A stretch of DNA of 56,609 nt from a bacterium (GTDB lineage: Bacteria; Bacteroidota; Rhodothermia; Rhodothermales; UBA10348). Made by a program: the position numbers and the translations under genes. Positions 17,099-20,409 of this stretch are shown piece by piece. Location: contig JABMOI010000015.1 in NCBI GenBank assembly GCA_013204185.1, positions 1 to 56,609 of the forward strand. The letters run 5' to 3'. How positions within the stretch are numbered: the first letter of the stretch is position 1; every line of letters starts with the position of its first letter. The notes under the pieces were generated by a model. That model was not told the origin of the DNA. It worked only from the letters and a program-made list of their open reading frames with translations, and did not search any database.

Positions 17099-18412
17099 AT
17101 GTCTAGAAATAAAATATTTGTTGTCGCCAAAAACGAGTTCACCAAGCGAGTAAAAACGCATTGGTTCGTTATCACAACGCTGTTGGGGCCCATCGTGTTA
17201 GTGACCTTTTTCACTGTGGTTGGCTTCATAACTGCCTCTTCGCTCGAAACCACAGAGAAATCCATTACGGTTCGCGATGAAACCGGCCGCTTAGCGACGG
17301 AACTGGTCGATACCTCGGGCAAAATCACGTTTGAAACCACTCAGGCAAGCGACGACGACCTCAAAACATCTGTGCTCAACAAAGAAGTCTCAGGGTATCT
17401 TGTACTTCCCGAAGGGCTTATTGAAGGCACCGCGTCCGCAAGTTATTATTCAACAGAAGGCGGCGGAATCAGCAATTTCTCGGGAGAACTTCGCTCCATT
17501 GTACGCGATGCTGTGCGTTTAACGCGCCTCGAAGATCAAGATGTGTCCAGGGACGTGTTCGACGCGATTACGGCCAACGTCTCCCTCGATTCCATCCAGC
17601 TTTCGGATGAAGGCGAGGAGCAAGGTAGCACGGCGGCTTACGCCATTGTGGGCGGTATCATGGGCTTTTTGATTTACATCACCATGCTCATTTACGGCTC
17701 CGTCGTGATGCAGGGTGTGATTGAAGAAAAAGTGAGCCGCGTTGTGGAAGTGATAGTGTCTTCCGTCAAGCCATTTCAACTACTGATGGGCAAAGTCCTC
17801 GGTATTGGCGCCATGGGACTTGTACAAATGTCATTTTGGGCCATTTTGATTGCCGCTGGCACCACGTTTTCAGGCGCCATTATCGCTATGATTGCGCCCG
17901 CAGATGCTGTTACCGCCATCGATGGTGCCATAGCTGGGGCTCCCTCACAAGCAGAAATCTTGGAATCTATTGGATTCACCGTTCCCGACCTCGGACCTGA
18001 AGTCTTTATCTTTTTTGTGCTCTACTTCCTTTTGGGCTATCTACTTTATGCCACGCTTTTCGCTGGTATTGGCTCGTCTGTGGAGCAACAACAAGATGCT
18101 CAGAGCCTGATGATACCTGTGATGATGCCCATCATTGTGTCCATCATCTTTCTCCAGGCAGTGATCGAAGCGCCCAACTCCACCCTCTCGGTGGTTCTTT
18201 CGATCTTTCCCTTCACGGCGCCCATCCCCATGGTGGTGCGAATCGCTATGATTGACGTCCCCTGGTGGCAAGTGGGACTCTCCGTGTCGCTGCTCTTCGG
18301 CACGTTCCTCGGCGCCGTCTGGGTTAGCTCCCGGATCTACCGCATCGGCATTCTTTCCTACGGCAAAAAGCCATCCTTGAAAGAGCTTATTCGCTGGATG
18401 CGGTACGCATAG
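17099..18412 (+). CDS. ABC transporter permease (NatB/ABC-2 family)
   Basis: 437 aa; N-terminal TM, large extracytoplasmic segment, multiple C-terminal TMs; directly downstream of the ATPase gene. Confidence 0.9.
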   Translation: MSRNKIFVVAKNEFTKRVKTHWFVITTLLGPIVLVTFFTVVGFITASSLETTEKSITVRDETGRLATELVDTSGKITFETTQASDDDLKTSVLNKEVSGYLVLPEGLIEGTASASYYSTEGGGISNFSGELRSIVRDAVRLTRLEDQDVSRDVFDAITANVSLDSIQLSDEGEEQGSTAAYAIVGGIMGFLIYITMLIYGSVVMQGVIEEKVSRVVEVIVSSVKPFQLLMGKVLGIGAMGLVQMSFWAILIAAGTTFSGAIIAMIAPADAVTAIDGAIAGAPSQAEILESIGFTVPDLGPEVFIFFVLYFLLGYLLYATLFAGIGSSVEQQQDAQSLMIPVMMPIIVSIIFLQAVIEAPNSTLSVVLSIFPFTAPIPMVVRIAMIDVPWWQVGLSVSLLFGTFLGAVWVSSRIYRIGILSYGKKPSLKELIRWMRYA

Positions 18413-18695
18413 AGCGTCTTCTTGCATTTCGAATGAGAGCTTGTGGCTCTTCAGCCATTAGCTCAATCAGTGACATTTTAGATGACGCCTTCACGCCTTG
18501 GGAATCGTCAATTTCCCAACGTTCATACGTTCGTTTTGGCACTCCAAATATGAATGCCATTCCAGCTTGGCTTTGGCCAAGCACCTCTCGTATGACTCGA
18601 AGCTTTTTCGCCGGTTGATCGCCCTTTCCATTCGAAACAACAAGGTACGTGATAGCGGCGGCTTTGAGGAAGGATGGTATTACGAGGGTGAGAGC
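18387..18695 (-). pseudogene. 5'-truncated antitoxin-like HTH (HigA/MqsA C-terminal type) remnant
   Basis: Open frame reads ...QPAKKLRVIREVLGQSQAGMAFIFGVPKRTYERWEIDDSQGVKASSKMSLIELMAEEPQALIRNARRRS; complete HTH, but the only in-frame start seen (GTG at 18584) falls inside helix 1 and an in-frame TAG lies just upstream. Confidence 0.5.
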
Positions 18696-18754
18696 TAGGA
18701 CAGGCTAGAACTCAAAGTTAAAGAGCTCCTAGGTTACTGATTCCTGTGAGATTT

Positions 18755-19741
18755 TTAGTCGCCAGAGATAACCCACCTTTCGAAGTTCTCAACCACCTTA
18801 CCGAATGCCTTCTGGTATTCAAGTCCAGGATAGTCGCGGCCGTCAGGGACGAAAACATCATGAAACTCAAATGCGTTTCGGTGCGACTCGACCAAATCCC
18901 GAGCACGAGAGGCAGATACGTAACTATTTTGATCGCTTTTGGCAGCGGTCAAACAGATTTGTTTGGCGGAAATCAGGAAGTCAAACAGGGCACTCCACAT
19001 AACCCATTTCGGATGATGGCGATGTCCCTCTTCTCCTGGTTGAAAAAGCTCCAGCCAAGGCTTTCTGCTGGTTGAGTAGGTGGCTGGTCGAGAAATGGAT
19101 TCTCTCACAAGTCCTGCCATTGCCATTTCTTTGAGCGCGTCACGAACTGCTGTTTGTGTAAAGCTGAGATGAGTACTGATCGTAGAAACCGTGACCTCCC
19201 TTCCAGACGTTCCTACGAGAAGAGCGATAATGTCTGCCTTAGCGCCCACTCCAAACGCTGCGCGAAGTCGAAGGAGCAATGTGGGACATCCCCTCAGGGT
19301 CAATTCTGATCTCTGAAAACCATCCGGAAGTCTTGTTACTTTCTCGGCATATTTGGCCCAACTCCTGTAACCATAACGGGAGGCCAACTCGGCAAAATGA
19401 ACAAATAAGTCCTTTCTAGAACTGTTTGTATTCGTCGCTAACACTTTCATTCTCTGTACGCTTAAGAGCGGAGTCCCGGCTCCTGCCCACCAATCTAGAA
19501 CTTCGTTAATGCGCTTTTCAGCGGATTGGAAGACGAGTGAAGCAAGAATGAGCGCTTCAGGATCTATAATCCGAAGCGCTTCGTGACCAGAAGTGGGGTT
19601 TGCCATCGAACCCAGGTTGGCCCATTGGTTCCAAATTATGTCTAAGGCCAACCGATCGATTCTATGACCGATGCCTTCCCAGTTGGATTCTGAGTTTGTC
19701 ACTTGCTTGTTCAACAAATTGTTTGAAATACTCACTTTCAT
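18755..19741 (-). CDS. Winged-helix protein partnered with a nucleotidyltransferase (candidate antitoxin/regulator)
   Basis: 328 aa; central TLLLRLRAAFGVGAKADIIALLVGTSGREVTVSTISTHLSFTQTAVRDALKEMAMAGLVRE is wHTH-like; N-terminal IDRLALDIIWNQWANLG...IDPEALILASLVFQ; overlaps the upstream NTase gene by 80 nt. Confidence 0.75.
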   Translation of the reverse strand: MKVSISNNLLNKQVTNSESNWEGIGHRIDRLALDIIWNQWANLGSMANPTSGHEALRIIDPEALILASLVFQSAEKRINEVLDWWAGAGTPLLSVQRMKVLATNTNSSRKDLFVHFAELASRYGYRSWAKYAEKVTRLPDGFQRSELTLRGCPTLLLRLRAAFGVGAKADIIALLVGTSGREVTVSTISTHLSFTQTAVRDALKEMAMAGLVRESISRPATYSTSRKPWLELFQPGEEGHRHHPKWVMWSALFDFLISAKQICLTAAKSDQNSYVSASRARDLVESHRNAFEFHDVFVPDGRDYPGLEYQKAFGKVVENFERWVISGD

Positions 19742-20258
19742 CCTGGGTTTTTACCCAGTCAATAGCTCGAGTTAGTTCTTTTTCACTAGGGCGGAGCGCG
19801 ATCAAATCTTGCCAATGTTTTGATTCAGGGCCTTGATCAATCGATGCAAATAATTTCAACGGGATTAAGCCTTTCCTTCCCACCATCCCAACTTCTAACG
19901 GGCCAAAGTCGAGCCAGGAGATATCTTCGTACAGTGAATCGGGTAGTCCAAATGTCCATTGGTTATCAATCACAGTGTTCAGCCAATTTTTTGGCAAATT
20001 GAAATCGCGCGCTACCCGTTCGATTACCAAACGAATTTCTTCTTGGAACGGGGAAGCTTTTGAAAAAATCAGTTTTCCATCATGCGTTTCAGCTTTTGCA
20101 ATTACATCCACGTCTTTTGTTGTTCTCCCAACAAGATTCGAAGCTGCAAGACTTGCTCCACCAACAACAACAATTTTAATTGATAGTCCGCCTTCTTCCA
20201 TATAGGCTCCAAGAGCGGAAAAAAGCTGAAAAAGTATCCTTCCGTCGAAATCAGTCAT
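19662..20258 (-). CDS. Nucleotidyltransferase-fold protein (DUF6036/AbiEii-like)
   Basis: IVVVGGASLAASNLVGRTTKDVDVIAKAE matches the NTase GG(x)S...D-x-D pattern; 198 aa. Confidence 0.75.
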   Translation of the reverse strand: MTDFDGRILFQLFSALGAYMEEGGLSIKIVVVGGASLAASNLVGRTTKDVDVIAKAETHDGKLIFSKASPFQEEIRLVIERVARDFNLPKNWLNTVIDNQWTFGLPDSLYEDISWLDFGPLEVGMVGRKGLIPLKLFASIDQGPESKHWQDLIALRPSEKELTRAIDWVKTQDESEYFKQFVEQASDKLRIQLGRHRS

Positions 20259-20266
20259 CTTAAAGT

Positions 20267-20321
20267 AAGTTCAACTTTTGTTATTAACAAGTTCAACTAT
20301 CTTTTATGGAAAGTTGAACCT
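20267..20321. promoter_or_regulatory. Candidate operator: three AAGTTSAACTT-like boxes at 22-bp spacing
   Basis: aagttcaactt 20267-20277, aagttcaacta 20289-20299, aagttgaacct 20311-20321; also TTGTTA-T-TAACAA palindrome at 20278-20290; immediately upstream of the NTase start codon (20258). Confidence 0.65.
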
Positions 20322-20409
20322 CTTTTTCTTGTATTTCAAAAGGACACGGTCGGAGTGTATTCATACCTCTATTGGGATCTATTCCACGCCACAATCGGTT
20401 TGGCTCAAG

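What the first reader, a model, noticed from the sequence alone, without database searches (positions are those of the whole stretch)
18755..20258. Overlapping nucleotidyltransferase / winged-helix operon: candidate undescribed TA or abortive-infection module
The sequence shows a 198-aa NTase-fold protein (VVVGGASLAASNLVGRTTKDVDVIA) whose 3' end overlaps by up to 80 nt with a 328-aa protein carrying a central winged-helix segment. Characterised AbiE-type systems pair an NTase toxin with a wHTH antitoxin/autorepressor, but there the wHTH gene usually comes first. Here the NTase comes first and the partner has a distinct N-terminal region (IDRLALDIIWNQWANLG...IDPEALILASLVFQ). I infer a two-gene TA/defence-like unit. 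The pair sits between a natAB-like locus and a cell-surface protease gene, which is consistent with an accessory insertion.
Basis: partly seen in the sequence, partly recalled or inferred. Interest (0 to 1): 0.75.

Follow-up and report, generated by a model that had tools for sequence, protein, structure and literature searches.

The report
Toxin-first nucleotidyltransferase–wHTH two-gene module
This is a small mobile two-gene unit that very probably encodes a self-poisoning enzyme (a nucleotidyltransferase) and its own antidote/repressor, resembling the known AbiE and MenAT toxin-antitoxin systems but with the genes in the opposite order and with an antidote protein of a type not described before as far as I could find.

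Summary
On the minus strand a 198-aa nucleotidyltransferase (NTase; 20258-19662) overlaps a 315-328-aa protein with a central winged helix (to 18755). They form a genuinely conserved pair. In the order to which the genome belongs, all 12 intact NTases of this clade are followed directly by the partner, always with overlapping genes, and the two families diverge together (mirror-tree r = 0.93). The NTase belongs to Pfam DUF6036, and 9 of 12 members also match AbiEii. The residues needed by AbiEii/MenT toxins (GG...R-x-T-x-D, K, D) are invariant. The module is accessory: the natB-protease gap is empty in relatives that carry it elsewhere, and one copy sits inside a conjugation operon. In two genomes the NTase's catalytic half is deleted while promoter and partner remain; no NTase lacks its partner, which suggests NTase = toxin. 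I also found an operator: three GTTGAAC boxes at 21-22-bp spacing before the NTase start; the direct-repeat pair occurs nowhere else in 27 genomes. Best reading: an autoregulated, toxin-first NTase toxin-antitoxin module, AbiE/MenAT-like in function but not a member of either family. Toxicity and phage defence are untested. New variant of a known kind.

The parts
19662..20258 (-). NTase gene (198 aa), predicted toxin: DUF6036 / AbiEii-like pol-beta-fold nucleotidyltransferase; motif G33-G34 ... R45-x-T47-x-D49-x-D51, K135, H148, D151
   Evidence: (AlphaFold pLDDT 94)
18755..19702 (-). Partner gene (315 aa from GTG 19702; 328 aa if ATG 19741): helical N-terminal domain with invariant D60-P61-E62, central winged helix, helical C-terminal domain; predicted antitoxin and autorepressor
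   Evidence: (AlphaFold pLDDT 86)
19662..19702 (-). 41-nt gene overlap, the likely translational coupling of the pair (80 nt if the partner starts at ATG 19741)
   Evidence: overlaps of 8-47 nt in all 12 intact homologous pairs by the likeliest start codons
20269..20319 (-). Candidate operator: three boxes, GTTCAACT (20319-20312), AGTTGAAC (20298-20291), AGTTGAAC (20276-20269), at 21- and 22-bp spacing just upstream of the NTase start codon
18387..18704 (-). Start-less XRE/MqsA-antitoxin-like helix-turn-helix remnant beside the module; not part of it, but marks the gap as an insertion site
18413..20409 (.). Extent of the insertion between natB (ends 18412) and the protease-like gene (starts about 20410), empty in relatives G001 and G006

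Best explanation
A mobile, autoregulated toxin-antitoxin module with the toxin gene first. The DUF6036/AbiEii-like NTase is the toxin; by analogy with MenT and AbiEii it would transfer nucleotides to a translation component, most likely the tRNA acceptor end, and stop growth. The partner has two jobs: its winged helix binds the three-box operator in front of the NTase gene and represses the operon, and its other domains neutralise the NTase, either by binding it or by inducing phosphorylation at invariant T47. Translational coupling through the gene overlap keeps the two products in balance. Shown here by sequence: the pair, its co-inheritance, the conserved catalytic residues, the operator repeats and their confinement to this promoter, mobility, and one-sided decay of the NTase. 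Inferred: toxicity, the tRNA target, neutralisation, repression, and any role in phage defence or element maintenance.
For: (1) Obligate, co-oriented, overlapping pair: 12/12 intact NTases have the partner directly downstream, mirror-tree r = 0.927, 0 of 2000 permutations. (2) NTase motifs invariant: G33, G34, R45, T47, D49, K135, D151 in 12/12, D51 in 11/12; these match MenT1 T39/D41/K137/D152 (PMC11375011) and AbiEii G49/G50/R63/D67/D69/K173, shown there to be needed for toxicity except G50 (PMC3985639). (3) Pfam: DUF6036 12/12, AbiEii 9/12, best 1.5e-8. (4) Operator: three boxes at 21-22-bp spacing; the direct-repeat pair occurs only upstream of this module in 27 genomes, reversed-pattern control 0; repeats of other sequence, often at 22-23 bp, stand at the same place in other lineages. 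(5) Decay: G003 and G044 have lost the catalytic half of the NTase yet keep operator and partner, and the G003 partner still shows pN/pS 0.24-0.27 against its congeners. (6) Mobility: empty sites in G001 and G006; copies inside a T4SS operon (G037), between TnpB genes (G038), next to HipA/DUF2779 (G006) or a NACHT-TPR gene (G063).
Against: No experiment. Neither PADLOC nor the literature searched describes it. The whole-fold matches of the NTase are weak (5uvd, E 4e-3), and hhalign against AbiEii of the same order gives no confident match. Motif III Arg of AbiEii is Gln here in 11/12, and motif IV (+DxxD) is replaced by (K/V)HxxD. G006 has D51N. The decay asymmetry rests on two clear deletions plus two divergent partner genes without an NTase (G007, G054) and one fragment (G021).
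Confidence: 0.72

Rival explanations
1. The pair is primarily an abortive-infection defence: the NTase is released or activated by phage infection and stops the infected cell. This is compatible with the best explanation but puts the selective benefit on phage defence rather than element maintenance.
For: AbiE systems, the closest functional relatives, give phage resistance (PMC3985639); some copies sit beside defence-type genes: DUF2779 and HipA in G006, a NACHT-TPR gene in G063; patchy distribution, 14 of 196 relatives.
Against: Most neighbours, including those in this window, are ordinary genes; the conjugation-operon copy fits element maintenance equally well; no phage or plasmid record carries it; PADLOC has no model for it.
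Confidence: 0.35
2. The NTase is not a toxin but a beneficial accessory enzyme (for example small-molecule or antibiotic nucleotidylation, like ANT or Lnu enzymes), and the partner is only its ligand-responsive repressor.
For: Same pol-beta fold; ANT(2'')-Ia is among the Foldseek matches (rank 3, prob 0.54); the partner has a MarR/TrmB-like winged helix and extra domains that could bind a ligand.
Against: Deletion of the enzyme with retention of the regulator (G003, G044) is the reverse of what loss of a useful enzyme would be expected to leave; R-x-T-x-D plus distant K and D is the AbiEii/MenT arrangement; AbiEii matches Pfam in 9/12; tight gene overlap and strict co-inheritance are more typical of TA pairs.
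Confidence: 0.13
3. Roles reversed, as in HEPN/MNT: the partner is the toxin and the NTase modifies and neutralises it.
For: NTases can be antitoxins (MntA adenylylates HepT, PMC7641770 abstract); the partner's N- and C-terminal domains are helical and of unknown function.
Against: Intact partners persist without the NTase (G003, also G007 and G054), which a toxin could hardly do; no invariant R-x4-6-H (HEPN) motif in the partner alignment; the partner has a DNA-binding domain and a matching operator.
Confidence: 0.05
4. The genes are a decaying, non-functional insertion in this genome.
For: A neighbouring HTH gene in the same gap is a start-less remnant; the NTase is deleted in G003.
Against: Both frames intact here, all catalytic residues kept, purifying selection (pN/pS 0.24 and 0.29), operator intact.
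Confidence: 0.05

Closest known systems
AbiE type IV toxin-antitoxin system (AbiEi/AbiEii, DUF1814, PF08843)
   Same: pol-beta NTase with GG...R-x-T-x-D-x-D and a later Lys; wHTH partner; bicistronic overlapping genes; repeats in the promoter; 9/12 NTases match PF08843
   Different: NTase gene first instead of second; NTase ~200 aa versus ~300 aa; motif III Arg replaced by Gln in 11/12 and motif IV +DxxD replaced by (K/V)HxxD; partner not alignable to AbiEi, with the winged helix in the middle instead of at the N-terminus; operator of ~10-bp boxes at ~22-bp spacing rather than 23-bp inverted repeats
MenAT (MenT1/MenT3 with MenA1/MenA3) of M. tuberculosis
   Same: MenT1 T39, D41, K137, D152 have counterparts T47, D49, K135, D151, invariant in 12/12; MenT1 is a similarly small NTase by the Lys/Asp positions
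   Different: menA1 homologs lie upstream of menT (PMC10435456); MenA1 is 7.4 kDa without wHTH and MenA3 22.5 kDa; no sequence relation of the partner found. tRNA target and phosphorylation untested here
Other DUF6036 proteins in the same class, with or without an upstream wHTH gene (L130, L132, L134)
   Same: DUF6036 NTase next to a wHTH gene in L130, L132 and L134
   Different: wHTH gene comes first and has a different architecture (hhalign aligns only the winged helix); NTase not alignable; other DUF6036 proteins examined show no partner-family gene beside them
HEPN/MNT (HepT/MntA)
   Same: two-gene unit with a minimal NTase
   Different: no HEPN motif in the partner; partner binds DNA by prediction and survives without the NTase

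Membership tests
AbiE (type IV TA) | NTase of PF08843 / DUF1814 | tested here: inconclusive
   9 of 12 clade members match PF08843 (best 1.5e-8), but the window protein itself matches only DUF6036; hhalign to AbiEii of the same order is not confident
AbiE (type IV TA) | Motifs I and II (hG[G/S]...R...DhD) | tested here: met
   G33, G34, R45, D49 invariant, D51 in 11/12 (motif from PMC3985639)
AbiE (type IV TA) | Motifs III (KLxAaxxR) and IV (+DxxD) | tested here: not met
   K135 invariant but the Arg position is Q142 in 11/12; motif IV reads (K/V)HxxD
AbiE (type IV TA) | Antitoxin of the AbiEi family, wHTH at the N-terminus | tested here: not met
   winged helix central; no profile match to AbiEi of the same order
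AbiE (type IV TA) | Antitoxin gene first | tested here: not met
   NTase first in all 12 intact pairs; AbiE pairs resolved in the same order are wHTH first
AbiE (type IV TA) | Antitoxin represses its own promoter through repeats | tested here: inconclusive
   three-box operator candidate next to the start codon, its direct-repeat pair unique to this promoter; binding not testable here
MenAT | Catalytic set T39/D41/K137/D152 of MenT1 | tested here: met
   T47/D49/K135/D151 invariant in 12/12 (residues from PMC11375011); equivalence by motif order, not by structural superposition
MenAT | Cognate MenA-type antitoxin gene upstream | tested here: not met
   partner is downstream and a 315-aa wHTH protein
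MenAT | tRNA nucleotidylation and growth arrest | not testable with these tools
   needs biochemistry
DUF6036 (PF19502) | Match over Pfam's gathering score | tested here: met
   23.9 bits against 23.6; all 12 clade members match at E <= 0.1
Toxin-antitoxin module in general | Two small co-oriented coupled genes, co-inherited, accessory | tested here: met
Toxin-antitoxin module in general | Toxin never found without antitoxin; the reverse tolerated | tested here: met
   no NTase of the clade without partner; partner without functional NTase in G003, G044, G007, G054; small numbers
Toxin-antitoxin module in general | Toxicity of one gene, rescue by the other | not testable with these tools
   needs expression experiment
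HEPN/MNT | Partner with HEPN R-x4-6-H motif | tested here: not met
   no such pair among invariant or near-invariant columns of the partner alignment

The most novel reading that the evidence does not exclude
A distinct, undescribed family of NTase toxin-antitoxin systems: toxin gene first, with a three-domain antitoxin (helical 'IDPEAL' domain, central winged helix, helical C-terminal domain) that both represses through a co-evolving operator with boxes about 22 bp apart and disarms the NTase, possibly by driving phosphorylation of the invariant active-site threonine T47.
Probability: 0.5. Interest if true: 0.66.

Novelty: new variant of a known kind. Interest (0 to 1): 0.55.

Why it matters
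NTase toxins (AbiEii, MenT) are widespread, but the described ones pair with antitoxins encoded upstream. A clade in which the order is reversed and the antitoxin is unrelated would be a natural test of whether neutralisation by active-site phosphorylation is general, because the phosphorylatable residue is invariant here too. The operator repeats and the wHTH change together between lineages, which offers a comparative system for repressor-operator co-evolution. It also gives a possible function to part of DUF6036, at present 'nucleotidyltransferase of unknown function'.

Tried and rejected
Searched and found nothing: plasmids and phages by tblastn with the window proteins, and plasmids with proteins of divergent homologs; viral contigs with both alignments; one viral hit for the partner (L035) lies in a region with no matching gene and was rejected as chance. 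PADLOC matches of the partner (Csa3, CARF, PDC-M05A) cover the winged helix, so were not taken as membership. The NUP159 matches in PDB sequences rejected as chance. Fold matches of the partner, solved or viral, cover only the winged helix. Hits of the partner profile elsewhere in the phylum are short MarR/ArsR-type winged helices. The NTase hit in G109 is another kind of NTase without the partner. HEPN/MNT considered and rejected. Sigma-70 promoter scan found nothing at the operator and no more than chance in the region. No Rfam element.

Full report
WHAT IS THERE. On the minus strand lie an NTase gene (20258-19662, 198 aa) and a partner gene ending at 18755. In G001 and G022 an in-frame stop lies just upstream of the codon that aligns with GTG 19702, so 19702 (315 aa, 41-nt overlap) is the likelier start. 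Across 12 intact homologous pairs the genes overlap by 8-47 nt by the likeliest starts (derived).

WHAT THE PROTEINS ARE. The NTase matches Pfam DUF6036 just over the cut-off. All 12 clade members match DUF6036 and 9 match AbiEii, best 1.5e-8. AlphaFold gives a confident model (pLDDT 94); the best PDB neighbour is the nucleotidyltransferase-like protein 5uvd (prob 1.00, E 4e-3) and a weaker one is ANT(2'')-Ia. Invariant in 12/12: G33, G34, R45, T47, D49, R128, K135, D141, S146, H148, D151; D51 is N in G006. MenT1 needs D41, K137 and D152 for activity and is phosphorylated on T39 (PMC11375011); AbiEii needs G49, R63, D67, D69, K173, R180 and D192 (PMC3985639). The order and spacing R-x-T-x-D-x-D ... 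K ... D is the same here. Differences from AbiEii: the motif III Arg is Gln in 11/12, and motif IV is (K/V)HxxD. The partner has a winged helix at about 155-235 (TrmB/MarR type), flanked by helical domains without any Pfam match. Its invariant residues include D60-P61-E62, R97, R160, G164, D170.

IT IS A REAL, OBLIGATE PAIR. Among 196 relatives 14 genomes have the NTase and 18 have a partner hit. Every intact NTase is followed directly by the partner. The two families diverge together: r = 0.927, 0 of 2000 permutations as high. Full-length members were found only in this order, in 395 genomes sampled from the phylum. Other DUF6036 proteins in the same genomes lack this partner.

IT MOVES. In G000, G002 and G003 the module lies between natB and the protease-like gene; in G001 and G006 this gap is about 110-130 nt and empty, while both carry the module on other contigs. 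Protease identity to G000 is 82% in G002 and 83% in G001, yet the module identities are 77/68% (G002) and 65/49% (G001) for NTase/partner, so G001 probably acquired its copy independently. The G037 copy sits between VirB4/TrbE and VirB5-type genes of a type IV secretion operon, with VirB11 and ParA genes close by. The G038 copy has TnpB (OrfB_IS605) nearby, the G006 copy a HipA C-terminal fragment and a DUF2779 gene, the G063 copy a 1812-aa NACHT-TPR gene.

OPERATOR (new here). Immediately upstream of the NTase start are three boxes, GTTCAACT at -61, AGTTGAAC at -40 and AGTTGAAC at -18 (window 20319-20269). The same three positions are kept in G002, the spacing in G003, and the set shifted by 2-3 nt in G001, where the flanks are unrelated. 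The pattern GTTGAACT-N(11-16)-GTTGAAC occurs in 3 of 27 genomes of the family, only at this promoter (once in G000 and G002, twice in G001); the reversed control has 0. Other lineages have other repeats at the same place: AAACAGGATAAA repeated at 22 bp in G022 (0 of 300 shuffles as good), TTAGATTATCTA...TAGATAATCTGA in G038 (1/300 at 21-23 bp), the like in G112 (1/300), G063 (9/300) and G049 (18/300). G091 (one palindrome only), G072 and, at 21-23 bp, G037 and G006 are not significant by this test; G002 by itself is not either (40/300), its support being conservation with G000. The partner's helix after the turn changes with the lineage: (F/Y)TQxAxRD in G000, G002 and G003 against YSRATV/I in G063, G038 and G112. 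I infer an autoregulatory operator; AbiEi and Rv2827c also bind several repeats in their own promoters (PMC7319586).

WHICH IS THE TOXIN. In G003 most of the NTase gene is gone (only its last ~37 codons remain), while all three boxes and an intact partner are kept; the partner's pN/pS of 0.24-0.27 against G000 and G002 shows no relaxation. In G044 about the first 74 codons, with GG, R, T and both Asp, are missing, while the operator repeat and the partner remain, the latter with a one-base shift near its end that may be an assembly error. G007 and G054 have a partner without NTase beside it and G021 a fragment. No NTase of the clade lacks a partner. One-sided loss is what a toxin-antitoxin pair predicts with NTase as toxin; the numbers are small.

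COMPARISON WITH KNOWN SYSTEMS. In the same bacterial order the AbiE pairs I could resolve have the wHTH gene first. The partner does not align to AbiEi and the NTase aligns only weakly to AbiEii but clearly to other DUF6036 proteins (prob 84). So it works like AbiE/MenAT, on the evidence of the NTase motifs and the two-gene logic, but fails membership tests of both (gene order, antitoxin family, motifs III/IV).

LIMITS. Nothing here shows toxicity, a tRNA target, neutralisation, DNA binding or phage defence. Searches outside the phylum were not possible beyond plasmid, phage and viral collections, all negative, so relatives in other phyla may exist. The literature library lacks most subscription papers; no paper there mentions DUF6036.

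Noticed in passing
window 18387-18704 (-): Open frame without a usable start codon that encodes an XRE/MqsA-antitoxin-like helix-turn-helix; looks like the remnant of another TA antitoxin next to the module.
   Followed up: partly
L002:6515-6943 (-), L099:6686-8512, L101:6356-7294: The natB-protease gap holds different extra genes in different relatives (a truncated 142-aa ORF in G002, a hydrolase-like gene in G013 and G023), so it behaves as a recurrent insertion site.
   Followed up: partly
L130:488-1995, L134:464-2022, L132:1438-2939 (-): Another DUF6036 NTase (about 180 aa) is preceded, with a 4-nt overlap in L130 and L134, by a 320-340-aa wHTH protein of different architecture: a second, antitoxin-first-like DUF6036/wHTH pairing in the same class.
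   Followed up: partly
L037:1234-2061 (+) (own genome, contig C100): The window's own genome has a second, unlinked DUF6036-like protein (below Pfam's cut-off) without the partner.
   Followed up: partly
L013, around 2072 and 410 on the minus reading: In G044 the decayed module is flanked by two copies of the first ~60 nt of an SDR-type dehydrogenase gene, as if insertion or recombination had duplicated the target gene's start.
   Followed up: no
L087:8047-13482 (+) (G063): Next to the module in G063 lies a 1812-aa NACHT/AAA-TPR protein, of the kind seen in STAND-type defence genes.
   Followed up: no
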